This document shows positions 1,119-55,229 of a stretch of 64,000 nt of DNA, one piece after another (positions within the stretch are counted from its first letter, which is position 1; each line of letters starts with the position of its first letter). Origin of the DNA: Sclerodactyla briareus (Eukaryota; Echinodermata; Holothuroidea; Dendrochirotida; Sclerodactylidae). The stretch covers positions 124,001 through 188,000 of the forward strand of contig JAODTK010004443.1 in the NCBI GenBank assembly GCA_026419785.1. The letters run 5' to 3'. The translations under genes and the position numbers were made by a program. Below the pieces are notes generated by a model. It did not search any database, had not been told where the DNA came from, and saw nothing but the letters and a program-made list of their open reading frames with translations.

Positions 1119-1503
1119 GAATCCATGACATCACGTGAGTCGGGTGCAGTCATTTCTACTATTTCGCGCTGTATTAACAGGAAGAACGGAACTAATATTT
1201 CTCATGGTATTAATTCAATATTCTCTAATCAATATTGAAAGACTTTGTTCGGATCCCATCTATGGTTCGTTGGTTCCCAGGTTTTCAAACGTACAATTTT
1301 CACATCGTCTTTGCTTTTGCAGGGAATCCGCGGCCCTCATCTCGTGCTGCACACAGCAATTTTGTCATTGGTTGAAATTTCAAGTCATCATTTAAGTGAC
1401 AATTAACCTCTAGAAACGTTGACAACATTCTCTGATCCACTGCTGCTGGCTTTTACGCGACCGGCCACATTCAACTATTCTCTCTCAGTGCACCACTTCT
1501 CTG

Positions 1504-2762
1504 CACTTGCGTTGCTAGAGGGGGGCCATGGGGGCCACCCCCCCCCCCCACAATCGAATTCCCCCCAATGTTTTTTTTTAATGTTTCACCTAATACAACA
1601 ACATTTGGCACTTATCTGCTTATGCGGCTCTCTCTTCCCTCATTCGCTGGTCAGATTGTTCGAATTCTCCTCTGACAGTCCCAATTTTTTGGCACTAATC
1701 CCCCACAGTGGGCAAATTTCGCTTCGTAGATACCCTTATATTACACGTTTTTTACTTTTTGGAGTTGCGGCAAGTTCCTCTAGATCATAGAATACACTTG
1801 CAGACGAGAGGGGGGGTGGTGGGTGCGTAGATAACACTCCAACAACTTTTTTCACTTATGTTGTTCCCGCTGTCCTCATTCCCAGTCAGATGCTTGAATC
1901 GTTCAATTGTTTGTCAATATCCAACCAACGTATGCGGGGTGCAAAGGGGGAGGGCACTAGCTAGCCTTTTCCAGTTCGGGCAAAAACAGTGCAAAATGAT
2001 GAAAAACCCTTCCCAGAAATCTTGACCCCCGTACCCATAGGGGGAATACATTCAATCACCTGATATCCCAGCAATGCGCAAAAAGCAAAAAAAATGCGTG
2101 CCTTCTTGGGCTCAGTAGTACCCGTGGTTTTGTTGTCTGCTTTCAATACAATCCGATAATAACTATTTGAGCAAATCTTGTTTTTTTGTTTTTTGTTTTT
2201 TTTTTTAATTATTGCAATTGTTGATCCTGTGGTTATTAGCATCCTGGGTACTCCCTGGCCGCGAAGCATGGCCATAAGAGGAGGAAGCGTAGACACTCCC
2301 TCACATTCATACCAAGACAGTTTATTTTCATTCGTCCAAATGAGGGAGCCGAAAAGGATAAAAATGATACCGATATACAGGCAGAAAATGATCAAAATTC
2401 AGACAAGGCGAAATTCAAGAGAATTTTCAATCGAACCAGCAATTTTTTTCGCGCGTTTCGCCCGCCGTACGTTCTTTTCCACCATCAATCGCGGCTTGCA
2501 AGATTTGGGGAAACTTTTTCTCCCCCCCCCAAAAAATGGATGAGTCCCGTAACGCCTGTTATATCTGAAGCCCGTGGCAATTGAAATTTTGACCACTTAT
2601 CAAGAACAAGATTTTTGTATAGGAAAAAATGACTTCAAATGATGGCAAATTTTGAACCAGATTTTATCTGAGGGTTCCTAAAATGCAAAAAATTTCCAAA
2701 GGGAAGGGAGACAACCCCCTCCCCTTAGACCCCTCCCCCATGGCCACCCCCAATCGCCAGTG
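1504..2762. mobile_element. Non-autonomous hAT-like transposon
   Basis: The insertion is flanked by near-perfect 8-bp duplications, CTTCTCTG at 1496-1503 and CTCCTCTG at 2763-2770. The ends are related in inverted orientation: the left begins CACTTGCGTTGCTAG and then runs into a G-rich stretch with CCATGGGGG, and the reverse complement of the right begins CACTGGCGATTGGGGG and also reaches CCATGGGGG. A CA(G/C)TGGCGTAGC-like end with an 8-bp duplication is typical of the hAT superfamily. The interior has homopolymer runs and only shadow reading frames, including overlapping ones of 121-144 codons without domains, so no transposase is encoded. The corresponding place in the right arm, around 54600, lacks the element. 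Confidence 0.75.
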
Positions 2763-2866
2763 CTCCTCTGACACACATCTAGCAACTGTATACAGTTATA
2801 AACGTCTTTTTTCAAACTAACTTCTTGTCCAATTGTGGAAGCAGACTATCACATAACTGATAGAAC

Positions 2867-3060
2867 CCTGGGTTCGAATACTCAGCTCAGCACAAAGGAT
2901 GAGGGAAGGAATGAAACTGCTGTTCAGACAGCACTGACCCCGTCCTCTGACATTCACAGCAAGGGCCCGGGCCCGGGCCCGGGCCGAGGTATCTCACCCC
3001 CACCGCAGTTAACAGTGTGTGCTCCAAAGTCAATTTTTTCTTTTCCCCCCCTGCAACGTG
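2867..3060 (+). mobile_element. tRNA-derived SINE, body type B, fragment in the left arm
   Basis: It shares the stretch CTCAGCACAAAGG, then AAACTGCTGTTCAGACAGCAC and TCTGACATTCAC, with the fuller type-B SINE at 53260-53510. The inverted counterpart in the right arm is at 54350-54535, so this insertion predates the arm duplication. The tRNA-like head is lost. A short GGGCCC-repeated stretch near 2966-2985 is expanded relative to the right arm. Confidence 0.65.
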
Positions 3061-3375
3061 GTGCCAGAAAATCCGATAGTGTTTCTTAAAACGCTGTTGC
3101 GATCAGGAATTTTGAAGTAAGTGATTAATCCTACTGATTGTTTCATTGCCATAACAAATCATGTTATCTTTAATAAAAAAAAAAAACGATCTACAGATAA
3201 AAAATACAATTATTATACCAAATCATCAGGAACCGAAAACTTCTTTGAGCACCTCGCGAGGGTTTCGTGACCCCCATGGTTCAAATCTTTTACATGATTG
3301 AAATGACGTGCGGCAGGAAAAGTTATAAGTAAACATTGCGCTTTCGAGTTCAAGCAGTCACCGGATGTTTCTCTC

Positions 3376-5349
3376 TAGACGCCCAGTTCCCAGAATCCAC
3401 CGGAGTGGGCAACACACGACGAAAGCTTGGTGGGGAACGCCTCAATAGGTTTCATAAGTGTTTTTGAAGTACTGATTCGAGACGTCTATTTCCCTATGTT
3501 GCAACCACTCTCTTTGCGTTTAAACGCGTGGAATACCTTCCAATACGTTCAAATGACCATGGAACTTTTTTGAAATTATCAGGAAGAGTCGTGATTTTGG
3601 GCGAAAAGAAGGATTTTATTGCGATTACGTAATGTTCATGACGTCACCAAAACCAATGACCAGAGGTTATACCAACGAAAACAAAACCAACGATCCGATT
3701 GCTCAGAGTCGTTTCCGGAATCAATTACAAACTATGCAACACACCAACCAAGGCCAGACTTGGCAGTTGCCACAGTCGTTCGCGTTGCACGCACATCAGT
3801 GTGATAGCAGCATGAAGTAAGTTCGTCTGTCAGATGAAGGCTTCATTTCACTGTTTAGAAGTTATGACGGTAAATATTATACGTTATGGTTAGGTAACGT
3901 AACCGCAAGGGCTACGTACCATCATAGTACTAGTAAAGGTCCCTTACAAGGCCTAACGTGGGCTATGCCCCGTAGGCTAGGCTTGCCCTTCATCATGAGT
4001 CGTGTCTCTGTGCTGTTGCATACTACTAACTAGCCTAAGGCCCGTCTGCACACCATTAATCAGGCCATCGGCCTAGGCCTACTACCAATGAGCACAGTCC
4101 GCTGTCCTCTTCACAATCCCCAAACCTGTCCGCTGCAATGCAGGTATTTATCCGATGTAGAGTGTGACTAGGATTTTGAAGAAACTTTGTTTCGATTGTA
4201 AGTTATAGAAGTATAAAATTACTATTTGGAGCTCATTTTAGTTAAAATGCCGGGTTCATTTACCTAATCCTAGGTCAACCAAAAGTTCTTTAGTTTAAAT
4301 CTGCCCTACTTTAGGACGATACTATTGTATGTGTGGAGTAAATCTGAAATTGTGATAAATGAATAGGCTAGGCTTGTACTTGCATAATGTTGTTACTAGC
4401 CATAATGTTTTATTTATGTTTGACACTGGCCATTGTGGAAAAACATGCTGTAGGCGTAGGTCAACACAGAATATTTAGGCGTGGCATGTCAGTAATAAGT
4501 GGCCAAGTTGAAAGCCTACATACAGTCTGTGCCTACGCTATAATTTTTGATGAGGAGTCACATAAAGGCTGAACAAACTTTCAATTGTGGCGCACCAGTA
4601 AAAAAATGTAGCTTGTCTTTCAATTACTTTACAGTTCATGTAAGAAAATCACACGAAACTGATTAGTTTTCTGTTTGTTATAACTCCAATGAGTTTTTCG
4701 GCTGACAATGTACAGTCAGCGTAACATTTACTTCCATGTGAGAAAATCCCGACATTTTTTGATGGTTTGTTTTTCAACACCTGTAGAAAATACAACAAAT
4801 CTTATTTAAGTTTGGTTTTTCCTAACTTAACATTACAAAATTTTACGAAATGAAATCCTATCATTGGGTGAGAGGATGCATTCCCTTCTGGGTAAGGCAA
4901 TGGGGAGGGGCCAAACTTCGGTGGGGATTAAATTATGGATGCAATAAAATGGTCCAATTTATACTATTATAAACTGATTGTCACTCTACAACATGCCATT
5001 ACTCACTATGGTCGTTAGCAGCATGGGATGGAATCCTCGCAACACTCATTGTTTTCACAACTTAATATAACAAGATGCTCATCACAAAGGCGAGTCATGA
5101 CATGCATGCCACCATTTGATATTGGCACCTTTTCTCCACCCAGAATACGGGTAGTTATGTTTAACGAGTGAGACAAAGCGGATAGGTCCTTCCTACTTAT
5201 CCCTATCTGTAATATATTTAATCACCCATATAACTCACCATTGACCACCCCGCACTGAAGGCTTTAAATTCTGGTTTCCGAAAACTCTGGGTCGCTGTAC
5301 AATACATGTAGTTGGGATGAGCGAGGTCTTAGTCCTCACTTTATAGTTC
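3376..5349. other. Unassigned central part of the left arm
   Basis: There are only short reading frames, at most 62 codons, and none is recognised. No SINE boxes, transposon termini or tandem arrays were seen. The segment lies between blocks that clearly match the right arm, but I could not align it with 50606-53084. Either arm may have been replaced or may have diverged here. Confidence 0.35.
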
Positions 5350-5610
5350 CGCTGTATCTAATGGAGTGGACCTCGTCGGTTCCTGGAATTTGTTTCGGTA
5401 TATTTGTTGTAATAAGTCTCGTCGGTCAGTTGGGAACATTCACGTTGAACATGAATCTCCATGTTTACCTGGTTCCGAGAATGTGGTTCGATACCGGAGT
5501 TCACTGTTCTCACTTTCAAATGGGGACGTAAATTAACAGTGACCGTCTCGTAAACCGTTTGGGATTGCTGTTTAGTGGTTACATCCCAGTATCGATATCA
5601 GTATGATTGA
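5350..5610 (+). repeat. Dispersed repeat C, copy 1
   Basis: This is a direct-orientation match to 17874-18115. Shared landmarks in order are AGTTCCGCTGTA, AAGTCTCGTCGGTC, CACGTTGAAC, GGTTCCGAGAA, TGGGGACGTAAA and CGATATCA. The sequence just upstream (GAGCGAGGTCTT, near 5319) also matches 16183-16215, so the family extends a little further left. The element class is unknown. No coding capacity was seen. Confidence 0.75.
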
Positions 5611-5867
5611 ACTCACCGAAAAGGTGCCCCAGAAGGAAATGTGGGGTTCCAGCTAAATGCGGATTTTTCCATATTTGTTTCGAGTGAAATGTATATTCTT
5701 GGCATGAATATCACTGCAAAAGATAACAAAATTAACCACAGATTGCATCTGGGACCCTCAATTGTTCAAAGGTTTCTCAGAGGCTTGGACACCCCTCCCC
5801 TCATGGCCTGCTCCTACCGACCGGCAGCCACAAACATCTCAGTAGTTCGCTTATTTAAATCACTAAT

Positions 5868-6220
5868 ATTTTTTATGTTGTACTTGCCGAGCAGAGGATC
5901 GAGCCTATTCAGGCCCCGCAAGTGCAGATCTTGATACTGCACCCTATTGTTACTGCGAATCCCTCACCAGCTACACGGATTAAGGCAATCAATAATGGCG
6001 GTACTCAATGTTGTGGGGGTTGGGGGTAATCACACGCAGACGGCAACTTTGCAAATTGCCTTCCCCTCGTTGTCCCTGCTCCCATCCCTAGTGCTGAGCG
6101 TCCAGCGAGAGCCCCCCCACCCCCACCCAACAGTTACCATTGTAAATCTTGATGACCGACCGTGATCTACCCCGTCTACCGTGGAGGCGACGCTCTACCA
6201 CTATGCCACCATTCTCGGTA
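5868..6220 (-). mobile_element. tRNA-derived SINE, body type A, near full length
   Basis: On the minus strand the tRNA-like head (A-box region around 6185-6215) comes first. A body follows that shares the GGCAATTTGCAAAGTTGCC-like and GGGATTCGCAGTAAC-like stretches and the CTCGGCAAGTAC 3' end with the copies at 14930-15264 and 49092-49448. Length matches the roughly 350-bp family. The B box is badly mutated, so Pol III transcription is unlikely. Confidence 0.75.
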
Positions 6221-7221
6221 CGCACTCCATGCACCCCACAAGCCTGTCGAAATACGAAGCAAACATGTTTTAATAATTCAGCTGATACACGATACACGTC
6301 GCTGATTTTATCGGTAGTTAATATGCTATATTACACGGCTTTCTTACTGTAACTGGTCACCATATTAATATAATTCTTGTTCAATACCGTTAAAGAGGCA
6401 TTATTGTCTGGTAGCAACCGTCGGATAAACGACGAAACGTTTGTATGACTATGATGCCACGAAGAAAAAACCGTATCAATGCAGTTCCGATGCCAATTAC
6501 GGTATATCGACAGTATGATAAGTCAATACAATTATGATTTCGATGTATCGTGGTTCTCCGTCGTGACATCATGAGACACCGTCCACTTTCTGCCGGTGTT
6601 GCCGATAGTCCTCTCTAAGTACTATTTCAATTATCATGTTCAGAATTATTAGGTACTCACTGAGTTGGTATTCCCACAGCATATTAGGGTCAGTCACTGA
6701 TGGTGAAGTATTCATTAGGATACATTCAGATCGTTCCAAAAGCCAATATCCCACAAAACAGTGCGAATGCAAGTACAGTATGACGAACTACACAACTCAT
6801 TCACTCCCCCACCACATTTTCAAGCTCCATCAATCTCGTCGGAATTCAAAGGCGTCCTGGCAGTATAAGTTTTTATTAGTTTCGAAAAGTGTGCTATTCT
6901 TAACAAGATGAAAATGATGCGGTCGTTAGCCTATGTTTACGTATGGGGCGACTATTGTTTACTTAATCGGTGACGTATAGCGATTGTTATAGTTTTATGG
7001 AATAAAAGAGATTCAAGCTGTTTGCAACAGCGCACTGGCCTAGGTCGTTTACGATTTAGGCATTATAGTAATAGACGTCCGAATAGAAGAGAGACAGAGA
7101 GAGAGAGGGGGATAGTTGAGGATGATGACCCACTCGCGTAAATTGCAAGATGAACACTTACTGATACCCAATAAACACTGGTATGTGCGACTATCATTTT
7201 TGTCCTGTATTCATCAATCTA

Positions 7222-8240
7222 ACGACCCAAAGCTTTCCGTTATGCGATACAGATTTCTGATTGGTTAATCCCAATCACGTAGCCGACTGTTATTTTTGCA
7301 ATAACAGTCCGCTAGTCAGAGTAACACAACAATCGAATACTTGCTCGATTTGCTGCGTCTTAAAAAAATAAACGCAGTACTTTTTTAAACGCGAATGTAA
7401 GGATGCGTGATCCTTTGGAAGTTTATGTTTTACACGCTCAATCCGGCTAGCTTCAGTATACTCGCGCTTCAGAGGGCGTAGTGCCTCAACGGAATACAAA
7501 CGGGCGAACGACGCGTCTCGCGTTGCATGTGAACGCCAGTTCACACGCTCATAACCCTCCGGTTTCGCCGCGTGGTTTGATTGCGTCCTCCGTGGAAGTA
7601 CGCACAGCACGCACTGCCAATCTTTTGTGTATGGTGCGCAATGCAATTTACTTCGATCTAACTAACGTAATAGTTACTCTAGCTGCTTAATTACTGTTTA
7701 GAGATCGAAGATATAGAGATATAGATATCTCTAATCGCCTGGGTAATTCTTGATTTGGCGGGTTGATAGAATAGGAATAAACTACAGCAGGTCGACTTTT
7801 ACTGGTTCATAAACAGTCTCGACTCTGAATTTAGCTTAATACCGAGCTCGGCTGCGCCCTCGTCCGTTTTTACCTAATTCATATTCTCGACGTTTAGTCA
7901 CCAGTCAGTCTCCCGTTTGCAGTTTATTCCTTAATTATGACAGACGTTAAGTTGCCTACACCATTATCCTACACCATTGTCTCAGACGCGCTACCTGAAA
8001 TGTCCCCGAAAGAGTAACACAGACCGAAGTTGATCAAACCATTTAACGCACGAAAATGTTATCCGCGTAGTCGGGATAATTTCTCCCTCAATTTGTCCCC
8101 GCAGAGTAGCGCATAACCGAGATGGTCAAACCCTTAAGCACATTAAGGTGATCGCGTGTCAATCCGAGTGCGGGGGACATTTTCAAATTGGTTCAATATA
8201 TTGCACGCGTTACCTCTCCAGTTAATATAATAGCTCCATG
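7222..8240 (-). mobile_element. Unclassified 1.0 kb insertion specific to the left arm
   Basis: The right arm (49640-49750) lacks this block. It is flanked by ATCTA at 7217-7221 and 8241-8245, a candidate 5-bp target-site duplication. Its right-hand end, read on the minus strand as CATGGAGCTATTATATTAAC and onward, recurs at 23976-24210 on the plus strand and, as a 25-bp stretch only, at 57151-57175. A roughly 98-bp unit is tandemly duplicated at about 7998-8160. I see no terminal inverted repeats, no TG..CA ends and no recognised ORF; overlapping frames of 118 and 69 codons at 7290-7690 look like chance. Confidence 0.6.
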
Positions 8241-8588
8241 ATCTATCCCCGGCAATCCAACAAAAACGCGCCTATACTGGATTGACGCCAGCGTGTAAAA
8301 AATAGAACAATGAGTAATGTTTTCTTATGCAACTTTACTATGACTACTAGCGAGGCATGTTCCACCGACTTTCAGCGTCAGCCGCTCTACCTGACGAATG
8401 TCCCCCATACCCGCACTGGAAGGGGCTGCGGCGGTTGCATTTGGCGTTCATACACATACTGGTACCTTTCGCACCCTACCTTTAGAAATTGTCCCCAGCA
8501 GCCCGCGTAATCGCGCGTATCATTGTTTACAGTATTTCCTCGTGCCATTTGATATGATTATTAAACAGACTTACAGACAAATACACTG

Positions 8589-9000
8589 AAAATGCCGCTG
8601 GTCAATAGGAAGCCACCCGCTGTTAAGTGATTATGAAGTCGTAATGAGGCACTGCTTAGTTTTTCCTACTCCGTTGAAGGTCCGTCTCAAGCAGGAGCAG
8701 TGATCCTGGGCAGGTGAGAAGGGGGGCAGGCAATAAATATAACATATCCCCCCCCCCTCATAAATACCTCTACTAGGAATATTTTTATGCCTATATTAAC
8801 ACATCACCATGCACATACTATTTGGGTGCATTTCTACTCTACTATTCTCCTTGCGCCCGACTGCCTTAGATACTCTATTGCGGTGCCATCAAATGAAAAT
8901 GCCGCTGGTCGACCTTATTGTTCACTCTTCCTCAGTGATGATACGGTGGCACTGGTTATTTTCCCTTACTCCGTTACAGGTCCGTCTCAATTAGTAGACT
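8589..9000. repeat. Internal direct duplication within the arm
   Basis: The motifs AAAATGCCGCTGGTC and TACTCCGTT(G/A)(A/C)AGGTCCGTCTCAA occur twice, beginning near 8589 and near 8897, about 305 bp apart. Both units are preserved, inverted, in the right arm at about 48350-48490 and 48830-48990. The tandem duplication is therefore older than the arm duplication. Confidence 0.7.
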
Positions 9001-9775
9001 ACGGACAACCATGAACATCACAGCTGCTGGCTGCTGACAGTGCCGTGCCAGAAATTTCAGACAGGAGGGCAAGAGATCCCACGGGAGACAGCGCCGTATG
9101 TTACTACCTCAATGGAAGGGTTCACCACAAATCTATTTTTTTTAAACACGTGACGGACCTAAATATGACCCATGCTCATTTTTTATCCCACCATGAATGT
9201 TCTTGCCTCCTCCTGAAGCGAATAAAATTTAGAAGCATCACAGGTCTTTAATCACTTTCCATCAAGATTGAATATGCTGGACCCAGCCCTAAGTTGCGAG
9301 TATTAAAAAAATCTTGGATTATATACTCAGCCAGTCAGCGAATAGCTCATGAGCCTTTGAATGAAGAGTTGCAAGTGTCTGTCGCTGCTTCCTGATAATG
9401 GCGCAAAAAATTCACCCATGTTCAAATGCAAGCAGCACCAAGTGACTCTTCCGGCTTGTGAACATTGATAGACGGATTGGACGATCGATTCGTCCCTCTG
9501 TTTAGATCGTACTCTCACGTAGCACTGCGCGCTACTTCTAAACGTCGATATACTTGCCAACATGTTGTAGGTGTCTGGAAATGAGCATCGTCTGGCATGT
9601 ACGTACATGAGGCAACTGCTTCGGCTGCGATTATGGACCTTCAATGAATTTACAGTGGTTAAAAAAAATCGACTATAATACCTGTGGGGGGATATTTCTT
9701 GGGGCGGCGGCCCCTTTCACCCCCCTACGACGAGCCTCCACCCCCCCCACATTGAGGTGCCAATTCTCCAACCAG

Positions 9776-9880
9776 AGAGGCGTTCCGCGTATAATCCTGA
9801 GGGATTCGCAGCTGACAGAAATAATTGTACTGGTTTCCAGGTCTGCACCCTTGTCAGACGAATATTCACGTGGTGTGGGA
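9776..9880 (+). mobile_element. SINE type A, 3' fragment, shared by both arms
   Basis: GAGGGATTCGCAGCTGACAG, then CAGGTCTGCACCCTTG, correspond to the 3' half of the type-A SINE. The inverted right-arm counterpart is at 47385-47490. The head is missing in both arms, so truncation happened before the arms separated. Confidence 0.65.
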
Positions 9881-10315
9881 GGGGGGGGGGGTTCCAGTTA
9901 GGACTAACTATTAGCTAGGTAGCAAATTATGCCATCGCTCATGGCTTATAATATGGAGCACCCAAAGTTTGAAGAAAATGTTCACTGATACAGAATTTTT
10001 TTCCATGGTCGAAGAGTTGCTGAATTCTCAGTTTTCTGATTGTCAAGAAGTTGGCGAGGTCAGAGACTTTTTTCAACAGATTCGGCAGAATCTGACCGAC
10101 CATCAACTTCCTCTCAACTGCCAGGAAATTCAACAAATGTCAACGCGGTACTCTCTACGTACCGCGCACAGCCAGAATACAAGAACGCAACATGGCGTAG
10201 TGATTCATTGCCAAATAATCCAACGCGTAACAAACGAGACTTTCAGGATCACCTCGGAAATCTGAATATTCATTTTATTATATATTTTATTCGATATTTA
10301 TTGAGTATTAATTAA

Positions 10316-10376
10316 TATGATATATATAGGATATATTATAATATATATATATTATATATATATATATATATAATCT

Positions 10377-10450
<74 letters not shown>
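10316..10450. repeat. (TA)n microsatellite at the inner edge of the left arm
   Basis: A nearly uninterrupted TA tract with a few TATTA breaks. It follows closely the point (about 10180) where homology to the right arm fades. With the tract at 958-1118, the left arm is bracketed on both sides by TA repeats. Confidence 0.95.
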
Positions 10451-10454
10451 ACTT

Positions 10455-10720
10455 AATATACGTTCCGTAACTTATGCAAGGTGCCAATATTGACAAGCCT
10501 GCACATACCCTTCCAGACCAGGTGACTATACTTCAGTGCGGTACTAAGTATTGTTATAGAGTTAAAGTGTACTCCAGGGAGTACATCTTTACAATGGATT
10601 TTATATCCCATTTTTTATTTACCGAAAGTTCATTGCCACGGTAGTACTGCTGTGGCCAAGTTACATTTTCATCGAATATTATACCTAGAAAAGTGACCGA
10701 GGCGATATTTCAATCTTTCA
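10455..10720 (-). pseudogene. Non-LTR retrotransposon RT C-terminal fragment
   Basis: Minus-strand translation of about 10600-10690 gives VTFLGIIFDENVTWPQ, matching the (V/I)xFLGxxxDExLxW signature just after the reverse-transcriptase palm in CR1, L2 and Jockey-type LINEs. No long frame remains. It lies downstream, on the same strand, of the endonuclease region at 11744-12700 and may be the same insertion with the RT core deleted. Confidence 0.55.
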
Positions 10721-11743
10721 TTCCGTTTAATAGCAAGGAACATTACGTGTACCTATCATTCTGTGTTTATTCAAAAAAGAAAAGCTTTTCGTTTTTCAAG
10801 ATTTCCAAGTATAGTTTCTTCGACTCTTAACCACTCTGAGATATGAGTGAATTCAGTATTCAGCCCCCACTAATCTGATCCAACTGGCATTCCTTACATT
10901 GCACATACCAAGGGCTTGCGTTTAGTTTACTCCTAATCCTTATTGTTTTATACAGCATGACGTGCTGCTTCTTGATGAAAGCTATCTGAACAGAAAACAA
11001 CGGGGCGGTGGTCATGCACTCCAGTAGGGGGTTACGTGATTGACGTTTGGCACTATGTAAAGTGCGGAGGCCTGACCAAAACATTTCTGGGAGTGGGGCA
11101 TGTAAACTTTGGGCAGAATAATTTCTGGAAAAATCGGAACTGGTAGATGGAATGAATGTCAAAGAGGATGCTTGTAGATTTTATTCCTTGTATCATCTCG
11201 AGTCATCGGCATGTTTGACATTTCTATTCATTCGTATTTTTTTTTCTCATTAACTTGGGATTGGCAGACATCGGGAACATCTTTCAAGGTTGATAAATGC
11301 AGCTTAGAACAACCCGGCAAGTGCCTTCTCCTGGCCATCTAAAGGTCCTCAATCCCAAGAATTCCTGGACGAAATCCGCGCTAACCAATGATGGCCTTCG
11401 CTTAGATACTATCCCCAACCAGTCTCAACCCCCGCCCCCTAATTCCAGAAACACATCTACCCACTGACTTCTTGTTAAAGAGAATAATTACATGAGTCAA
11501 CATTCGTAAAATGCCTCTGAAATAAATCTTTAAGAACATCATTTGAATTAATCAGAAGAACCAGAATTTCTTTCTATCTTTTTCAATTTCAACAACGAAT
11601 TCTTTCTTCCTTCTCGAGTAAGAAACACAAACAATGAAACTCACTGGATTCATATCATATACTCGAATGGTTTTTGGACACCATCTTGTATTCTCTCTGC
11701 CAGATCCCCCTCGCCACTGAATGACTAAAACCTGAAATTTCGT

Positions 11744-12700: not shown

Positions 12701-12704
12701 TCTT

Positions 12705-13080
12705 CCAGTTGATGATCCGCTTCTTTGATATATGATTGTGTTACGTATCGTCAGAGCACCTCCTTTATCGGCTGATTTGATGGTGATCTCGACATTGTTC
12801 CTCTTTGGTTATGTTCTTCGGTAAATCCTTTGGGTGCTTTCTAGGAGAATTCGTTGACGGGTGCTCTGGCTGCGCCCGTGAAGCTATCGATGTAAATGTT
12901 ACAGCCGTCTTTGGAGTTCAGCTGGATTTTTGAGAGGGTCTTGTGTAAGTTCTGGTCGGCTCTCTTTCCGCAGATTCACTCTTGTCGTGAAACTACTCAC
13001 GTACTTTCACTCTCCATTTGGAGTCCTCAGTGACGGAACACGTCCCAATGGTACCCACAGAACGGGTAGGGCCTACCTGG
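12705..13080 (-). pseudogene. Penelope-like element N-terminal fragment
   Basis: On the minus strand, 12795-12760 reads EITIKSADKGGAL, the I.IK.ADKGGA motif that precedes the RT domain of PLEs. A YIKEAD-like stretch follows after a frameshift. Further upstream, near 12970-12900, FTTRVNLRKESRPELTQDPL resembles the F.RRLRL region at PLE N-termini. The fragment abuts the LINE endonuclease remnant at 12700 on the same strand, so one element probably inserted into the other. Class confidence is good; boundaries are vague. Confidence 0.6.
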
Positions 13081-38015: not shown

Positions 38016-38019
38016 GAGC

Positions 38020-39090: not shown

Positions 39091-39156
39091 ATTAGGCAAT
39101 CACTACTCTCGGGATCCTTAGCACTCATCCCTTCCACTTCTCGCATTCCTGAATGG

Positions 39157-39317
<161 letters not shown>

Positions 39318-39344
39318 CAGTTACTCGATCAGGATGAATCGCTG

Positions 39345-40560: not shown

Positions 40561-40564
40561 TCCA

Positions 40565-45349: not shown

Positions 45350-45760
45350 TTGTGTGTTACATAAATAGTTGGGTCCACTGGTACCCACGCAGACGAACAG
45401 AACTATCCCTCTAAGATGTTTCAATAACGAGAAATCAGTGTCGGACATGAAATTCATAAATGTTTCAGAGCTGTTTTACAGAGGACATAACTGCAGATAG
45501 CGATGTGAAAGAAGTGTTTTAGTATGTCAGTGTAATTGACTTATTGGTCTATTGCAACAAAACAACTCTGGTCGTCTCAAAGAACTTTACCTCATCAGGT
45601 CAAATGAGGTCAAAACGTCAAAGGAAGTCAAAGTAGGTAATCCGTTGTAGTTTGTACAGACGATTACGCCCCCCCCCTCCCAGAATGTCTTTTTTGCGAA
45701 GATATATAAAAGATTTGAAGAGACAAATGTACCCGTGCGAGCAGCTCTGAACGACAGGCA
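45350..45760. repeat. AGGTCA-rich repeat E, copy 2
   Basis: It matches 35640-36060 in direct orientation: CAGACGAACA, TACAGAGGACATAACT, GATAGCGA, AATTGACTTATTGGT, AAAGAA and GCGAAGATATAT occur in the same order. AGGTCA at 45597 and 45607 keeps the 10-bp spacing of copy 1. Confidence 0.7.
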
Positions 45761-45847
45761 AATGCACTTGTTATAAGTAAAATCGTTTCCGCAACTTACA
45801 GTTCGTGCTACTTCAACTTCTCGGTAGTCTGAGTAACACCCCTGGAT

Positions 45848-46042
45848 AAATCACACGCAGACGGCAACTTGCAAATTGCCTACCCCTCGTGTGATCCCTG
45901 CTCCATCCTTGTGCTGAGCCTCCAGCGAGAAGGCAACGGGTACCATTTTTAAAGTCTTTGGTATGACCCGACCGAGATATCGAACCCCGGTCTCCCGGGT
46001 GGAAGGCCGACGCTCTACCAATTGTGCCAACCACTCGGTTCC
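45848..46042 (-). mobile_element. tRNA-derived SINE, type A, 5' half
   Basis: The minus-strand head 46042-45965 has ACCGAGTGGTTGGCACAATTGG and a B-box-like GGTTCGATATC, followed by the type-A body down to the GGCAATTTGCAAGTTGCC stretch. The 3' half is missing. This is one of the best preserved heads in the window. Confidence 0.85.
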
Positions 46043-46989
46043 AAGAATGCAATGTAAACGCGTAGTTGCGCATATAAACAGGACTAGAGACTGTTGCTCT
46101 AGCCCTAGATCCAGAGCCCAGCAACATGCAGTTCAGTTTACTTCTGTACTCAACTGCTTATCAATTACATGAATGCCGCGCGTGGTGTTACTGCTGATGA
46201 ATTGTCCAACAAGCAAAGGAATTTACGAAGATTGAGAATATTTCATTGTTAAGTAGTAGCCTGGTAAGCTATAGGCTGCGGGTTTAAGTCGGAGATGAAG
46301 ATATCATAGAGCTAATACAATGAAATATTAGGCATAGGCAAAGTTATGCCTCGGCTGAATTACGTACAAACTATATGACGACGGTCGATTTCTTTCGCAT
46401 CATTGACGAATTCAACCGCTTATTTTAAAACAAAAAGTTCATTTGCACATATCCGTCGTTCTTCTAGAATACACCGCCAAAATTATGCTGAAAAGTTGAG
46501 CGATGTTGGGATGAAATACCGCCACACTTTCTTCGAGTAATTTAATGCTAGTCTAACGAGTCGCACTGGGCACTGGCTAGTATTACTAGCAGTAGATAGA
46601 AACCGTACCTAGATATGTACCTAACTATGTCGGTCCGTTATAACCCGGCGACTACGATAGCCTTTGAAGGACTTATTTGTAGGAATTATGTAAGAAACGA
46701 CGACTAGTATGAGAACAATGATTGAATGTTTGTTGTAGAAATGATTATTCTGTTCTGGTGCAATTGCGAGAAAGATGAAATTCATGATCGATGAGGTTCA
46801 TGTCCCTGGAAATTGTCTATTCATCGTAGATAGATGCATTTATGACTGTACCCCGGGACTGTACTGTCATTATAACAGAGTGTATGTTATTTTTCACTCC
46901 TGCCGAAGGCAAAAGGATCTATGCAGTTCATAGTTGTGAGTATGTGTGCGTGTCTGCTTTCCCACTTATTTGATCATATTTGTCGCGCT
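46043..46989. other. Unassigned sequence
   Basis: No ORF of 60 codons or more lies wholly here, and no repeat or terminus was recognised. It flanks the inner end of the right arm; the left-arm flank (the TA tract and LINE at 10316-10720) is unrelated. Confidence 0.4.
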
Positions 46990-47384
46990 GTGCGCGCGTA
47001 CATAAGGGGAATCTTTTGACATTTTGTTGAATTTCCTAGCAGTTAGAGAAAGATTTATGTTGGTCCTGATTTTGCCGAATCTGTGAAAAAAGTCTCTTCC
47101 CTCGCCAACGTCCTGACTGTCGGGCAGGCACTCAGATACTGAGAATCAGCAACTCTTCGACTATGGAAAACATGAATGATACCAAGAGTGAACATTTTCT
47201 TCGAACTTGGGGGCTCCATATTATAAGCCATGGGCGATGGCATAAATTAGGCCTAACGACACACCGTTCACCTACCTTCAATTAGGCTACGTGTGGTTAG
47301 TACTGTTAACTGAATGAAAAAATCACTAGGATGATTGCATATCCCACCCTCTGGGAAGCACCCCCCCCTCGTGAATATTTAAAA

Positions 47385-47490
47385 GGCATCGTCGGTAAGG
47401 GTGCAGACCTGGACACCATTGCAATCATTCCTGTCAGCTGCGAATCTCTCACCGATTATACGCGGCAACGCCTCTCTGGTGGAGCAGCGG
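47385..47490 (-). mobile_element. SINE type A, 3' fragment in the right arm
   Basis: AAGGGTGCAGACCTGG, then GTCAGCTGCGAATC (plus strand) are the type-A 3' body. The inverted partner is 9776-9880. It is headless in both arms. Confidence 0.65.
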
Positions 47491-48479
47491 CACCGCAATG
47501 GGGGTGGCAGAGTAGTCATGGGGGGCGAGAGGGGGCACAGCCCAAAGAAATATTTTCCCCCCTCCCCACAGGTATTCTAGTCGATTTTTTTTAAACCACG
47601 GTAATTTCATTGTAGGTCCGCAATCGCAGCCAAAGCAGTTGCCTCATGAAAGTATATGAGTAGAGGGCTGCTCATTCCAGACACCTACAATAGCTGGAAA
47701 GCATATCAACGTTTTAGGAGTAGCGCGCATTGCTCTATGTGAGAGTATATTCTCAACAGAGGGAAGAATCGTTCGCCCAATCCGTCTAGCAATGCTCACA
47801 AGCCGGAAGAGTCACAGATTTTTGCGGCTATCCCCAGGAAAGCAGCGGCACTTGCAGCTGTTCTAACTCGTTCAAAGGCTCATGAGCTATTGGCTGGCTG
47901 GCTGAGACAGTATTTCACAGTCTATATAATCCAAGATTTCTTTTTTAATACTCGAAACTTAGGGCTGGGTCCATGCATATCAATCTTTGGCTGGAAAGTG
48001 ATGGAAGACCTGTGATGTTTCTATTATTCTTAAAAGAAACACATGAGTTTAAAATCCAAAGCAAATACACATGTTACTAAAATTGTATATATTCAAATAT
48101 ATATCGAAATTTTATTTGCTTCAGGAGGAAGGCATGAACATTTATGGTGGGATGAAAAATTAACATGGGTCATATTTAGGTCCGTCACGTATTCCAGAAA
48201 AGATAGATTTGTGGTGAATTCTTCCCGTTGCCTACCCACAGACTCATTGAATTATTCCTGATACATTTGTTAATGCGGTAGTAACATACGGCGCTATCAT
48301 CGTGGAAACTCTTTCCCCCTGTCTGACAATTTCTGGCAACCGCACTGTCAGGTTCCGTAGTATACTCATTGAGACGGACCCTGTAACGGAAAAGGTAGAC
48401 AGTAAGGCTACGAATGGGTTATTACCTTGAAATCAAATACCCTGATATCGGACGGCTGCCCATTAACCAGCGGCATTTT

Positions 48480-48600
48480 CAGTTTAGTTCAGTTTAGTTT
48501 TAGTTTAGTGAGGAAGAGTCAGGAAGGACATAGTCCTCATGAATGACCCTGAAACCACAACCCCCAAAAATGCAAACGAGCCCATAAGCTATCGCCCACA
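48480..48600 (-). mobile_element. 3' tail of a CR1/L2-like LINE
   Basis: AGTTTAGTTTTAGTTTAGTG, then GTCAGGAAGGACATAGTCCTC and ACCACAACCCCCAAAAATGC match 57195-57275, the 3' end of the LINE at 57195-58116. The TAGTT-type repeat is the tail microsatellite. It has no visible counterpart in the left arm, so it is probably a right-arm insertion or left-arm loss. Confidence 0.6.
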
Positions 48601-49091
48601 ACAGTGTATTTGATGGCACCGCAATAGAGTATCTAAGGCAGTTGGGCGCAAGGAGTTAGAATAGTAGGGTAGAAATGCACCAAATAGTATGTGCTGGTGA
48701 TGGGTAAATATAGGCATAAAAATATTCCAGCCGAGGTATTCATGGGTGGATATGTTATATTATATCCCACACACCTATTTTCATGGAGGATCCCTCCCCC
48801 AGGATCGCCGCTAATGCTTGAGACTGGCCTTCATTACTGCAGAAAAGTTGAACAATAAGGCTAATAGGCTATAAATGGGTTATTACCTTGATAAATGAGA
48901 TGAATGAAATAATGAAATTCATAATTACTACCTTAATAATCCCTTAACCAACGGCCTCTCCCTATTGACTAGCGGCATTTTCAGTGTATTTGAAGTCTTT
49001 AATAACCATATCAAATGGCACGACGAAACGACGTAGACAATGTACACGCTCGTTCACGCGGGCTGCTGGGGACAATTTCTAGGTAGGGTGC

Positions 49092-49448
49092 TAAATTTAA
49101 CCGAGTGGTTGGCACAATTGGTAGAGCGTCGGCCTCCACCGGGAGACCAGGGTTCGATTCCCGGTCGGGTGATACCAAAGACTTTAAAAATGGAACCTGT
49201 TGCCTTCTCGCTGGGCGCTCAGCACAAGGGATTGGAGCAGGGACAAACGAGGGGCAGGCAATTTGCAAGTTGCCCCCGTCTGGTGTGGAATACCCCACCC
49301 CACAGTTAAGAAACCGCCAAAGAGGCATTCAGTGTACCTAGTGAAGGATTCGCAGTGCCAATTTGGTGCATTATCCAGGTCTGCACCCTTGCTAGGACCA
49401 TTTATCGGATCGATCCTCATGCTCGGCAAGTATACCATTAAAAAAAAA
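49092..49448 (+). mobile_element. tRNA-derived SINE, type A, full-length reference copy
   Basis: The head, 49098-49172, has an A box TGGCACAATTGG and a B box GGTTCGATTCC. The body runs through GGCAATTTGCAAGTTGCC, GGATTCGCAGTGCC and CAGGTCTGCACCCTTG to CTCGGCAAGTATACC and an A-rich tail (AAAAAAAAA) at 49439-49448. Sequence on both sides, TAGGGTGC and ATGTGTATGAACGC, is nearly contiguous in the left arm at about 8440-8475. That arm is therefore the empty site and fixes both ends within about 15 bp. Confidence 0.9.
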
Positions 49449-50684
49449 TATGTGTATGAACGCAAATGCAACCGTCTCAGCGTCTTCCAGTGCGGGTATG
49501 GGGAATATTCTTCAGGTAGAGCGGCTGACGTTAAACGTGGGTTGAACATGCCTCGCCAGTAGTCATAGTAAAGTTGCAAAAAAAGACATGATTACTCATT
49601 GTCCCTATTTTCTACATGCTGGCGTCAATCTAGTATAGGCGCGTTTTCGTTGTACTGCCGGGTATGGATGAATACGTCGTATACGCATGAAGTTCATTCC
49701 ACAATTCCACAATTGTGTAGGCAAATTCACGTCTTTCATAATTGTATAATAACAGAAAAATAATGAGTCGCACATACCATTGTTTATTGGGTTTCAAACG
49801 TGTCATTCTTGCAATTTACGCGAGTGGTTTATCATTCTCAGCTCCTCTCTCTGTCTCTCTCTCTGTCTATTACTATAATGCCTAAATCGTAAACGACCTA
49901 GGCTAGGAAGCTGTTGCAAACAACTTTAATCTCCTTTATTCCATAAACTAAAACAATCGTTTTATGTCACCGATTAAGTAAACAATAGTCGCCCCATACG
50001 TAAACATAGGCTAACGACTGCATTATTTTCATTTTGTTAAGAATAGCACACTTTCGAAACTAATAAAAACTTATACTGCCGGACGCCATTTGAATGCCGA
50101 CGAGATTGATGGAGCTTGAAAATGTGTGGGGAGTTGAATGAGCTGTGTAGTTCGTCATACTGTACTTGCATTCGCACTGTTCTGTGGGCTATTGGCTTTT
50201 GGAACGATCTGAATATATCCTAATGAATACTACACCATCAATTAGCAGACCCTTCACGTTGCATGGAAAATTACCAACTCAATTAGGTACCTAATAATTC
50301 TGAACATGATAAATGAAATATTACTTAAGAGGACAACACCAGCGGAAAGTGGACAGTGTCGCATGACGCCACGACGGAGAGCAACAATATATCGAAATTA
50401 TCATTGTATTGACTTATCATTATCATACTGTCGATAAAACCGTACTTTATAATGGAATTGCAATGAGACGTTTTTCGTAGTGACGTCATAGTCATACAAA
50501 CGCTTTCGTCGTTTTTCCGACAGTTCCCCCAGGCATTAATGCCTCTTTAACACGTTATTGAACACTAAAATATATAATTACCGATGACCGAGTTACAGTG
50601 AGAGCAAGCGATTTCATCACTCGCAACAATCAAGTCAAGCTAGCTACAACTATACTCCTCAAACACTGAACACACTGATGTGCC

Positions 50685-51310
50685 TCGTTTCTCCCTAGTA
50701 ACACTAACATTAGGCCCACACTACAGGCCTGAATAGGCCTAGTGCTGAGGCTACGTTACGACTACATCGTTATCACCGAGTACTTTTAGTGGTGGACTAA
50801 GGACTAACCTAAATCTTAGGAGGGAGGAGAATCAAAGAAATAAGAGAATACCGAATAACGTACACTTAGTTCCACGCCGCACAGTTGCTCCAGTACATGA
50901 AAACATACAATAACTTAACTCTAGTAACACTATCGTTAGGCCTACACTACGGCCACAACTATTAATAGGCCTGAGCTTGTGCTAGGGCTACGTTTACTAC
51001 ATGTACGATCACTTGTAGTTGTAACAGTGTTACAAAAACGATACTAATGTAGGCCTTTTACTATTAACAGTAACACTCAGTATAGACAGGTAGAACTTGA
51101 GCCTAAGTTAGAAACGGAGTGGCGGACTAACGTTTATAGGACTAAGTAACTTAGGAGTTACGACTACAGTGAACATGGAGTGTTAGTGTGGAGTTTGGGT
51201 AAGGGTTAACCTATATTCTAGCAGGGAATCAACTAATAAAGAATAACGTTACACTTTAGTTCTAGTTCTACGCCGTCGATGCGTCCAGTACTCTACAAAA
51301 GTTAGTCACA
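50685..51310. repeat. Tandem duplication in the right arm
   Basis: Two units (about 50690-50900 and 50930-51300) share CTAGTAACACTA, TTAGGCC(C/T)ACACTAC, AATAGGCCT, GGCTACGTT, AATAACGT(A/T)ACACTT and GTCCAGTAC. No equivalent was recognised in the left arm. Confidence 0.55.
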
Positions 51311-53084
51311 ATAACCTAACAGCCCTAGCGCTGTCGCCCGTGATGCTTTTTCTTGTGGAAAAATTCTAGATTTCGGAGCAGAGAAACAATAAAGTGTCAT
51401 ACCAACATTAAGTGAGGAAAATGAAATCTTGTCTGAAGGAAGATATTGGGGATTTCTCATTATTTTCCTATCTATATAAATATCATATATAAATATCATA
51501 TTTATGCTGAAAACTTTTCAAAGTGGCAAAAAAATAGAGTGGTGACGTAACTGCCTGTCAGGTATTTTCTATTCACGAAAGGAAGTGAGGCATCAAGATT
51601 GGATAAGAAATATTTCTTCAATGAAATAAACACATGGACCAATTAAAAGGAGGAGAGGACAGTCATGAGATATGAAATAAATAGTTGAGACTGCCAGTTT
51701 AATAGCGATCCATTCTATTCTGAGAAAAATATAGGCCTAATTGTGTTGTAGTCGTCAACGGTATACGACACTGTCACTTCTTTTATGGAAAAGGATCAAG
51801 CACGATCATCATACCTGTGAAAAAAATCTCTGCGCAACGTCATTGCAATTAAAAATACATTGTCGCCCAACTGCTGGGAGAAATGTTCCAAAATCGTTAC
51901 CTATTATTGCGATGAAACAAATCCACTAGGAAGTAAACATGTTTTACAGAGGAAACACAAAGTTTTGAATTGATGTCTAGCAAGTAATACAAACAAATGA
52001 AGCAATACTGCCTCTTCTGCGCAATATAAATTCATATTGAAGCCAGGACCAGGGCAAAATGATAATGTCCGGGCTTTTCCCCCAGTTTCTCTTGGCCTTT
52101 CTCATCCTAATTTGAACGAAAAACAGTTCCTCATAAAATTTATCCGAAATTACTGTATAATCAACTAATCACAAATTATTCTCGATTAAATACCAACTGA
52201 ATCGTATCTTAGATTCGCCGATTGTAACATGGCTATTGCAACTTCAGACTGCACATGACTACACAAAATCTGAGACAGACTCCTATGCAAGTGATTTCAT
52301 AGTCTTGTTCAAGACCTCGTGACTGTGACTCAATTTGCGCATCTCATGAAGGTTCATGAAGGTGCCTAATGCATAAGCATTAGCTGTATGAACGGGCAAT
52401 CAATCATACATCAAGTACCGCCTAACGTTAAGAAAGGCTAAGTTAGTTAGTCGAAAATTATCAATCTTTTTAGGCCTACTTGCGTCAAAAATTAATCAAC
52501 AACGAGAAACGTGTTCATTAGTAATTAGCGGCGAAAATGAGCTCTCTTACCGTTCCCACTCGGCTGAGAACTTTCGCTGCAAAGCATTAAACAGCTTGGA
52601 AAACTTCACATTCTCGATGGTCTCTCACAACTCACTAGGTCTATTTCCTATATCGTACTATTCATGTTGCCTATTCTTGTCGAATAAGATATTCAAAATA
52701 GCAATAATAAATTGCAGATTTCTCCGACAGAAATGAATGTTTCGTTCCCATCTGTCAATATTATTAATTTTCATTCCAGACATAACACACATATTGGAGA
52801 AAAATATAAAACTTCAGTATGTTAGTTTAATAGGGTTCCTCGTAGAAGCCGAATTAGCAAACCCACGAGACGTAAACAACTACGTGAAACGTGGTGTGAT
52901 TGGCTTCTTTAGATTGTAAAGATAATGACTTCATATTGAACAGTTCCCCAAGACGAAGCTATTGCCATTCACCAGTCACCACTGATATATACGATAGCTG
53001 GAAGGCACAACTGGCTGGTTCGTTGCAACGAAGATAAAGAGTGCTAGCTTCGTCTTAACCCAAGACTATTGATTTCATCGCTCG
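51311..53084. other. Unassigned central part of the right arm
   Basis: Frames of 60-65 codons are unrecognised. No match to the left arm could be traced, and no SINE boxes or termini were seen. Confidence 0.35.
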
Positions 53085-53259
53085 CAGAAACGTCGGTGAA
53101 TGTTTGAACTCGAAAGCGGAATGTTTGCTTGCAGGGCGTCACCGAGAACATTCTCTCACACTTCCGCCTAGAACTGCGAACTTTGAACATTTAGTAATGT
53201 TACCACTTTTCTACGGCAACTAAAATGAATGATGATATTTGCAAGAACATAACGGTGCA

Positions 53260-53530
53260 ATGCTTTGGCTGGCACAGTTGGTAGAGCGTCGGCCAGTTGG
53301 TAGTATCCCAGTCGGGTGTACCAAACTGCCAAAGACTTCAGAAATGATATTCTCGCTGGGTGCTCAGCACAGGAGACTGAAGCAGGGAAGGAAACTGCTG
53401 TTCAGGCAGCACTCGCCCCGTCGTCTGACATTCACGGCAGGTCGGCTGGGTCCGAGGTGCCGGGTTCACATCGTACGCTCCTATCTTTACACTTTTTTTC
53501 CTTTCCTAGCATGACCTCGATTTTTTTTTT
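53260..53530 (+). mobile_element. tRNA-derived SINE, type B, with head
   Basis: The head has TTGGCTGGCACAGTTGG and TAGAGCGTCGGCC; the B-box part is shortened (CCAGTCGGGTG). The 5' body matches type A up to CTGGGTGCTCAGCACA, then diverges into AACTGCTGTTCAGGCAGCAC, TCGTCTGACATTCACGGCAG and a T-rich end near 53520. Types A and B therefore share a head and proximal body but have different 3' bodies. It lies in a block absent from the left arm. Confidence 0.8.
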
Positions 53531-53794
53531 GAATTCTACTAACCTAAGGCGAGATGTACTATCGGCATTGGCACAACCTTAACGATCGTTGGGAATATAA
53601 AAGGAAAATAATGAGGATTGTCACTAAAATCTCAAAAGCGTGCCGTAGTACACTCCAGCTCTCAGCGATTACTATAGACTGGGCAGGAACGCAACTACCA
53701 CATCAATTACAGAATAAGCGGCGTTACATCGGTAATTGGTGAATAATAACAAAAAAGGATTCAACGTATACAAGAGCTCTCATCAAATCTCAAT

Positions 53795-54110
53795 ACTTTT
53801 GCAATTTACGCTGGCGGTTTGTCAGATCAATATTGTCCTTAGTGATTCTCTCTCGGTACTTTCGTATCCCGATATCTTTTAAAGGAATGCATAAAGTCTG
53901 AACGACCTGGCTGGTAGAACCGTCGTATATCTTCGTGGCTTGGGGTTATAATGGCTTCGCATGAAAGCAAACAATCCCACCGTTTTATGTCACCGATTGA
54001 GTAAACTTCAGTCGTTCCAAATGTAAACATCAGCAAACTACTCCGTCTTTCTCATGTTATTAAGAATAGCTACACATTTTTTAAATGAATTACTGCCGCA
54101 CGCCATTACA
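53795..54110 (+). repeat. Third copy of an arm segment
   Basis: It matches 49810-50100 in the same orientation and about 6880-7190 inverted. Landmarks are TTTGCAATTTACGC, CGTTTTATGTCACCGATT(G/A)AGTAAAC, ATGTAAACAT, TTAAGAATAGC and TACTGCCG(C/G)ACGCCATT. It sits exactly where the left arm is continuous at about 3330, so it arrived after the arms separated. Confidence 0.75.
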
Positions 54111-54349
54111 ATCATGTAAAAGATTTGAACCATGGAGGTCACAGAACCCTCGCGAGGTGTCCAAAGAAGTTTTCTGTTTCTGATGATTTGGTATAATATA
54201 TTTATTTGTTCATCTGCAGATCAGTTCTCAAAGATAACATGATTTGGGGCAATGAAAGAATCAGTAGGAATAATTAGTTACTCAAAATTCCTGATTGCAA
54301 CAGCGTTTTAAGAAACACTATCGGATTTTCTGGCACCAAGTTTCAGGGA

Positions 54350-54535
54350 AACGAGAAAAATTTGGAGCACACGCTTTAAACAGCGCCTGGCTGCGGTGAG
54401 GGGGGATATTGATCCCGACACCTCGGCCCGGGCCCACTTACTGGGAATATCAGACGATGGGGCCAGTGCTGTCTAAACAGCAGTTTCCTTCCCTAAACCT
54501 TTGTGCTGAGCTGAGTATTGGAACCCAGCGTTTAC
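54350..54535 (-). mobile_element. SINE type B fragment in the right arm
   Basis: The reverse complement reads CTCAGCTCAGCACAAAGG, then AACTGCTGTTTAGACAGCAC and CGTCTGATATTCCCAG, matching 2867-3060 in the left arm and 53340-53460. The insertion is shared by both arms and headless. Confidence 0.7.
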
Positions 54536-55229
54536 AGTGATGTGATGGTCCGCTTCCACAATTGGACAAGGAGTTAGTTTAAACAAGACGTTTATAACTG
54601 TGTGCACTGAGAGAATAGTTGAATGTGCGTGTCCGAGTTAGAGCCAGCAAGCAGTGAATCAGAAATTTGTCAACATTTCTAGAGGCTAATTGTAACGTAA
54701 ATATGAATCGACTTTCAAGCAATGCAAAATTGCTGTGTGACGTCACGGGAAAGGGACCGCGGATTCCCTGTGTAAAGAAAAGGCGATGTAAAACTTGTAC
54801 GTTTGAAAACCTTGTAACCAATGAACCATAGATGGTATCCGAATGAAGTCTTTCACAAATTATTGGAGAATAATTTCATTGATTTCCATGGGAATACTAA
54901 TTCTCGTCTTTATGTCATTACTGCGCAACATCGTAGAAATGACTGTGTAGTGTCTATGAGCGGCCTTTACATCGTTCCCCCGTGATGTCATGAATTTCTC
55001 AAAAGATGAATCGAAAAACTCAACAAGACAACATGCTAAAACCTTCAAAGTGGGGTTTGAGGTTTTGGTATGTCCTCCTGTCAACCTTACTAGTTTATGG
55101 GATGTCTGTTACATGACCATTTGCCTTTATTCACGCATGTTTTCCGGTCCACGAGTGAGAAAGCTTATCTCATACTTGTCCCACGCCCCCTCGATCTCCA
55201 GTTCTACCTCATCCCCAAAACATTCGGCT

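What the first reader, a model, noticed from the sequence alone, without database searches (positions are those of the whole stretch)
1121..54995. A giant inverted repeat: 8-9 kb diverged arms around a 37 kb interior
Ten or more landmark blocks in 1121-10180 recur in reverse complement and in the same order in 46990-54995. The arms are diverged, with numerous indels, and carry different insertions, so they have coexisted for a long time. Possible explanations are a very large transposable unit with multi-kilobase terminal inverted repeats, two inverted copies of an undescribed long repeat, or an old inverted segmental duplication. No ORF with a known mobilisation function was seen inside, so the transposon reading is unproven.
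Basis: seen in the sequence. Interest (0 to 1): 0.85.

Follow-up and report, generated by a model that had tools for sequence, protein, structure and literature searches.

The report
Old inverted duplication of animal-like DNA
A stretch of several thousand bases was once copied backwards about 37,000 bases away in an animal-like genome, and the two copies have since decayed and collected different insertions; this is an ordinary kind of genome rearrangement rather than a giant transposon.

Summary
Twelve blocks in 1147-10172 recur, inverted and in the same order, in 54945-46987: 3346 aligned bases, 88.7% identical without gaps. Divergence is homogeneous over the 12 blocks (p 0.95), as expected if one event made the pair. 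A further block (586-750 and 58291-58121) lengthens the arms to about 551-10172 and 58325-46987.

The window lies in a 319 Mb assembly. Two of three arm blocks searched there occur near full length only in these arms; their other scored hits are short and mark interspersed repeats that both arms carry at the same place. The third block also has older partial relatives on C1037 and C2880. The C2880 relative runs past the inner end of arm B in short blocks, which argues against a transposon terminus. No Pfam family reached E 0.1 in the scanned arm parts or in 30 kb of the 37 kb interior read through.

Best reading: an ancient local inverted segmental duplication, possibly left by a staggered-break inversion. 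The giant-transposon reading is not supported. A known kind; interest low.

The parts
551..10172 (+). Arm A of the inverted duplication
   Evidence: 12 collinear inverted blocks from 1147 plus the outer block 551/586-751
46987..58325 (-). Arm B of the inverted duplication, reverse complement of arm A
586..750 (+). Outermost arm block; partner 58121-58291 on the minus strand
   Evidence: 160 aligned bases, 86.3% identity, K2P 0.152
1147..1493 (+). Arm block; partner 54602-54945
   Evidence: K2P 0.156
2792..3372 (+). Arm blocks; partners 54090-54601 and 53086-53130; interspersed repeat pieces embedded within about 2794-3027
   Evidence: genome matches
6342..7201 (+). Longest arm block; partner 49756-50603; short interspersed repeat within about 6374-6594, the rest matched only in the two arms
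8241..10172 (+). Inner arm blocks; partners 49669 down to 46987; partial relatives on C1037 and C2880
10173..46986 (.). Interior between the arms, 36.8 kb, no inverted symmetry detected at its ends apart from a TA tract
   Evidence: no Pfam family at E<=0.1 in 10181-40182, six frames
49100..49448 (-). SINE-like repeat in arm B only; absent at this place in arm A and in the C1037 relative
   Evidence: related piece at 45849-46040 is of high copy number; SINE label by eye
1494..2791 (.). 1.3 kb present in arm A only (B is continuous at 54602/54601); insertion in A or exact loss in B, not polarised
54960..58118 (.). Stretch in the outer part of arm B without partner in A: a reverse-transcriptase fragment and an element also at contig 257159-258052; read as later insertions (inferred)
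   Evidence: RVT_1; repeat; Penelope-like and LINE labels by eye, recalled

Best explanation
This is an ancient local inverted segmental duplication in an animal-like nuclear genome. A multi-kilobase segment, already a patchwork of unique DNA and fragments of interspersed repeats, was copied once in reverse orientation about 37 kb away. It spans 9.6 kb of arm A and 11.3 kb of arm B today, with about 3.5 kb still alignable; its original length is unknown. The likeliest routes are a repair or replication template switch, or an inversion of the interior with staggered breaks whose filled-in ends leave the same segment inverted at both breakpoints. The two copies then decayed as non-coding DNA and took different insertions. 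Shown: the collinear inverted homology, its uniform divergence, the low copy number of two blocks among scored hits, the shared embedded repeats, stretches present in one arm only, and no Pfam domain in the parts scanned. Inferred: the single event and its mechanism.
For: (1) The substitution proportion is homogeneous over 12 blocks (chi-square 4.58, 11 d.f., p 0.95, numbers), as one event predicts. (2) Block 6342-7201 has 11 matches genome-wide: 2 near-full, both here, and 9 short ones within query 33-253. Block 2792-3372 has 40 scored matches of 88 candidates: 2 near-full, both here, and 38 short ones within query 3-236, one of them a second piece in arm B. (3) Those short repeats sit inside continuous A-B alignments, so the segment carried them before it was duplicated, unlike a clean transposon copy. 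(4) The two closest copies lie 37 kb apart in a 319 Mb assembly, which random insertion would rarely give (inference). (5) C2880 is collinear with arm B and goes on past the inner arm end to window 45713 in short blocks, so arm A looks truncated there and the boundary does not look like an element end. (6) No Pfam match at E<=0.1 in six frames of A 1120-10181 and B 45700-54962, while the same procedure found RVT_1 beside arm B. (7) No N in 264 kb of contig around it.
Against: Two older partial relatives exist elsewhere: C1037:696340-698153 (K2P to A and B 0.26 and 0.24, against 0.19 between A and B on the same columns) and C2880. The inner part of the arm is therefore a small dispersed family, which a dead low-copy repeat would also give. 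Only three arm blocks were searched genome-wide; the search is candidate-limited and skips very common words. The blocks of C2880 beyond 46987 may include dispersed repeats; the search that would show this did not complete. The middle 2.5-3 kb of the arms does not align. The ancestral arrangement is unknown because no related genome is held.
Confidence: 0.8

Rival explanations
1. Two inverted copies of an undescribed, extinct, long non-coding repeat (9 to over 12 kb) with few surviving copies, which landed near each other by chance or by local hopping.
For: Relatives of the inner arm on C1037 and C2880 at 71-89% identity by piece. The C1037 copy is only about 1.3-1.4 times as far from A and B as they are from each other.
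Against: Two of three arm blocks have no other near-full copy among the scored hits. The relatives cover different, partial intervals. Interspersed repeats sit at shared positions inside both arms. The closest pair lies only 37 kb apart. No Pfam-detectable coding remnant in the parts scanned.
Confidence: 0.13
2. One giant transposable unit with 9-11 kb terminal inverted repeats and a 37 kb interior, of the size class of Teratorn or Polintons.
For: Geometry only: inverted arms around an interior. Teratorn has long inverted repeats beside a unique region (passage in PMC6431247).
Against: No Pfam family at E<=0.1 in A 1120-10181, B 45700-54962 or 10181-40182. The inner end of arm B is crossed by homology to C2880. 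No second arm pair in the three arm-block searches.
Confidence: 0.03
3. Assembly artefact: two diverged haplotypes of one locus joined in inverted orientation in one contig.
For: The window was not checked with reads; the organism and its heterozygosity are unknown.
Against: About 11% substitutions plus kilobase stretches present in one arm only is very high for alleles (general knowledge). The 36.8 kb spacer shows no paired halves apart from a TA tract. The contig has no N over 264 kb.
Confidence: 0.04

Closest known systems
Inverted low-copy repeats at the 2Rj inversion breakpoints of Anopheles gambiae (PMC1952172; abstract and section 6 read)
   Same: Multi-kilobase inverted arms around a spacer, no coding capacity, made of degraded repeats, judged by its authors not to be a transposable element.
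   Different: There the arms are 5.3 kb, over 99% identical, with a 4 kb spacer, and the module sits at both breakpoints of a known inversion; here the arms are about 11% diverged with a 37 kb spacer and one pair is known.
Inverted duplications left by staggered-break inversions in Drosophila (PMC5080602; passages read)
   Same: A segment duplicated in inverted orientation at the two ends of an inverted interval is the signature of this mechanism.
   Different: There the non-inverted arrangement was known; here there is no outgroup, so the inversion is only a possibility.
Teratorn and Polinton/Maverick giant transposons (PMC6431247; passages read)
   Same: Large units with inverted repeats.
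   Different: Those carry transposase or integrase and viral genes; none was detected in the parts scanned here.

Membership tests
Inverted segmental duplication (low-copy repeat) | Segment of 1 kb or more present as collinear copies of low number | tested here: met
   12 collinear blocks; 2 near-full copies for two blocks; third block 2 copies plus partial relatives. Three blocks searched.
Inverted segmental duplication (low-copy repeat) | All parts of the pair have one age | tested here: met
   Homogeneous substitution proportion over 12 blocks, p 0.95
Inverted segmental duplication (low-copy repeat) | Copied DNA is ordinary genomic patchwork, shared repeats included | tested here: met
   Interspersed pieces at the same place in both arms
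Inverted segmental duplication (low-copy repeat) | At least 90% identity, the usual cut-off for recent duplications (recalled; an operational limit for recent ones, not part of the mechanism) | tested here: not met
   88.7% without gaps; hence called ancient
Staggered-break inversion footprint | Interior inverted relative to the ancestor, single copy of the arm in the ancestor | not testable with these tools
   No related genome is held
Giant DNA transposon with long terminal inverted repeats | Transposase, integrase or equivalent inside | tested here: not met
   No Pfam family at E<=0.1 in A 1120-10181 and B 45700-54962 or 10181-40182. Not scanned whole: 551-1119, 40183-45699, and the minus strand of 54963-58325.
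Giant DNA transposon with long terminal inverted repeats | Arms end at the element's interior borders | tested here: not met
   C2880 homology runs through the inner end of arm B in short blocks
Giant DNA transposon with long terminal inverted repeats | Target-site duplication at the outer ends | tested here: inconclusive
Giant DNA transposon with long terminal inverted repeats | More than one unit in the genome | tested here: not met
   No second arm pair in the three arm-block searches; candidate-limited searches

The most novel reading that the evidence does not exclude
The arms are the best-preserved copies of an undescribed, extinct, very long (over 12 kb) non-coding mobile repeat, of which C1037:696340-698153 and C2880:87237-90198 are older fragments, and the element tended to land near and inverted to its source.
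Probability: 0.1. Interest if true: 0.4.

Novelty: new member of a known kind. Interest (0 to 1): 0.2.

Why it matters
It shows that a spaced inverted duplication can stay recognisable and collinear down to about 12% substitutions while each arm takes in its own insertions. It is a usable relative clock for mobile-element activity at this locus. It may also mark an old 37 kb inversion, which a sister genome could test. It does not add a new class of element.

Tried and rejected
Giant transposon: looked for domains in six frames of A 1120-10181, B 45700-54962 and 10181-40182; no Pfam family at E<=0.1. Of 10 single open frames scanned, one gave RVT_1 (55529-56089), one gave a match below its cut-off (28546-29019, COP23, E 0.017, 15.3 bits against 27), and 8 gave none. 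The X-read scan of the + strand of 54961-63962 found only RVT_1. The control is therefore one positive, and weaker remnants that I read by eye, such as a hAT-like stretch near 63 kb, were missed.

Homology in the middle of the arms (A 3373-6341 against B 50604-53085) and just inside the inner ends: none by nhmmer. Wider blastn of the flanks gave only short or out-of-register matches, a TA tract, and the outer block.

Structural RNA: one tRNA family hit (34 bits) at 36358-36429, not in the arms; ARAGORN, bacterial settings, found none.

Ongoing exchange between the arms: the longest identical run is 53 bases, above the shuffled median of 33 and 95th percentile of 46; four of the six longest runs lie in block 6342-7201. 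A little clustering of identity is thus present and unexplained (slight constraint or old conversion), but no long recent tract.

Divergence figures: A-B K2P is 0.122 by block realignment but 0.188 on the 943 columns of the three-way MAFFT alignment. The two differ in columns and gap treatment and should not be compared directly.

Naming the organism: not attempted with a marker gene. 'Animal-like' rests on the repeat types, read by eye, and CpG 0.85 and is my inference.

Genome searches asked for but did not complete: 46050-46990, 1-960 and 1117-1493. So the copy number of B's inner flank without its SINE, and of the outermost arm blocks, is unknown. How common such pairs are in this genome was not measured beyond the 264 kb of this contig.

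Literature: one search returned no paper; searches gave listings, from which PMC1952172, PMC5080602 and PMC6431247 were opened in part. No search was made on this locus itself, so no claim is made about its being in print.

Full report
OBSERVATION. The window has no N and G+C about 42%, CpG observed/expected 0.85, and 14 stop-to-stop open stretches of 130 codons or more. A sensitive comparison of 1-13000 with the reverse complement of 44001-58000 gives a collinear series of 12 blocks from 1147-10172 to 54945-46987; 4 further inverted matches printed are out of order, and matches starting in the two TA tracts were not printed. In the direct orientation three minor matches were printed. Realigned block by block, the series has 3346 aligned bases, 88.7% identical without gaps, K2P 0.122, and 293 gap columns. 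Fifty Markov randomisations of both arms gave 2 matches in all at E<0.01, the best 34 bits. In 264 kb of the same contig this is the strongest inverted chain: 12 blocks, 3271 bits; the next inverted chain has one block and 630 bits. Direct chains of similar score exist there, from tandem arrays.

EXTENT. The arms are longer than reported. Block 586-750 matches 58291-58121 inverted, at K2P 0.152, like its neighbour 1147-1493 at 0.156; nhmmer extends it to 551-751. On the B side the gap of about 3.2 kb holds a reverse-transcriptase fragment (55529-56089, RVT_1 E 2.6e-10) and an element also present elsewhere on the contig. Beyond 551 / 58325, and inside 10172 / 46987, only short or out-of-register matches and a TA tract were found.

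ONE EVENT. Per-block K2P runs from 0.103 to 0.156, and the substitution proportion is homogeneous (chi-square 4.58, 11 d.f., p 0.95). The blocks are therefore consistent with one age. No absolute date is offered, since the species and its rate are unknown.

COPY NUMBER. The window is C2437:124001-188000 of a 319,486,128-base assembly in 3171 contigs. Block 6342-7201 gives 11 matches: arm A, arm B, and 9 short ones within query 33-253. Block 2792-3372 gives 40 scored matches of 88 candidates: arm A, arm B, and 38 short ones within query 3-236, one of them a second, inverted piece in arm B itself. Block 9230-10172 gives 9 matches: arm A, arm B in two pieces, C1037 at 74%, C2880 in two pieces, and short ones on C1435, on C363 and at window 14994-15068. 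The tool scores only the best candidates and skips very common words, so these are lower bounds; only three arm blocks were searched in this way.

SHARED EMBEDDED REPEATS. The short matches mark interspersed repeats inside blocks that align continuously between A and B. The segment carried them before it was duplicated. This is what a copied piece of ordinary genome looks like.

OLDER RELATIVES. C1037:696340-698153 is collinear with A 8354-9725 and B 49552-47520. On 943 columns of a three-way alignment K2P is 0.188 (A-B), 0.264 (A-C1037) and 0.244 (B-C1037), with 81, 68 and 120 changes unique to A, B and C1037; the A-B value is higher than by block realignment, with other columns and another gap treatment. 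C2880:87237-90198 follows arm B from 47926 past its inner end at 46987 on to 45713, in short blocks. I read this as follows: B keeps its original inner neighbour and A is cut at 10172. One caution is that the short blocks beyond 46987 may include dispersed repeats. A search of 45700-46990 was swamped by the SINE-like piece (2926 first-look candidates, 40 scored; the 39 matches other than the query itself lie at query 944-1147), and the search without it did not complete.

LATER HISTORY. The SINE-like piece 49100-49448 is in B but not at that place in A or C1037, so it most likely came after the duplication. The 1.3 kb at 1494-2791 is in A only and is not polarised. The centre of the arms, A 3373-6341 against B 50604-53085, shows no homology, so at least one arm was replaced or expanded there.

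CODING. Six frames of A 1120-10181 and of B 45700-54962, stops read as X, gave no Pfam family at E<=0.1. The same was true of 10181-40182; one interior open frame, 28546-29019, had a match far below its cut-off when scanned alone (COP23, E 0.017). The + strand beside arm B gave RVT_1, so the method can find a broken element here. Not scanned whole: 551-1119, 40183-45699, and the minus strand of 54963-58325.

MECHANISM. The best explanation is one local duplication in reverse orientation, made by template switching during repair or replication, or by an inversion with staggered breaks. The second predicts that A keeps its outer neighbour and B its inner one; the C2880 evidence fits the inner half of that, but a plain copy of B into A predicts the inner half too. 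I put the inversion footprint at about one third and the plain copied insertion at about one half of the duplication reading; this is judgement, not measurement. Functionally the locus is most likely neutral (inference). The longest identical run between the arms is 53 bases, a little above the 46 of the 95th percentile of shuffles, so recombination between the arms that would flip the interior is probably rare now (inference).

COMPARISON. The nearest described case I found is the inverted low-copy repeats at the 2Rj breakpoints of Anopheles gambiae: non-coding, patchwork, judged not to be transposable elements (PMC1952172, abstract and section 6 read). Staggered-break inversions with inverted duplications are described as the prevalent mechanism in Drosophila subobscura (PMC5080602, passages read). 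Giant transposons such as Teratorn carry transposase and viral genes (PMC6431247, passages read), which were not found here.

VERDICT. It is an ordinary, old inverted segmental duplication; interest 0.2.

Noticed in passing
24912-25172 and 27920-27691; 25371-25438 and 27472-27405; 25750-25876 and 27233-27105: A second, smaller collinear inverted repeat (arms about 1 kb, 76-82% identity, 1.2 kb between the inner blocks) inside the interior; tandem copies of a motif like GCCCGTTTTGTAATAAAA lie in its outer block.
   Followed up: no
   Followed up: partly
45849-46040, 49100-49448, 5869-6219, 14939-15264: Copies of a tRNA-like SINE family (label by eye) of high copy number: a query holding the 190-base piece had 2926 first-look candidates.
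   Followed up: partly
36358-36429 (-), 36371-36467 and 36743-36837: tRNA family hit (34 bits, cut-off 29) overlapping a 92% identical direct repeat; ARAGORN, bacterial settings, calls no tRNA there.
   Followed up: no
39332-40580 and 54960-57005: Remnants that read by eye like Penelope-like retroelements; RVT_1 supported only at 55529-56089, and no Pfam match for 39858-40295.
   Followed up: partly
8028-8229, 23985-24202; L035 (C2880:83752-86470): A dispersed repeat of about 200 bases that occurs several times within 3 kb on C2880, just before the relative of arm B.
   Followed up: no
59496-60623: Cluster of direct and inverted short repeats, related to repeats at C1037:689364-692798.
   Followed up: no
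62938-63400: Peptides that look by eye like a broken hAT-type transposase or a gene derived from one; not found by the Pfam scan of the + strand.
   Followed up: no
contig C2437:78958-81077: Large tandem array outside the window, many registers at about 78-87% identity.
   Followed up: no
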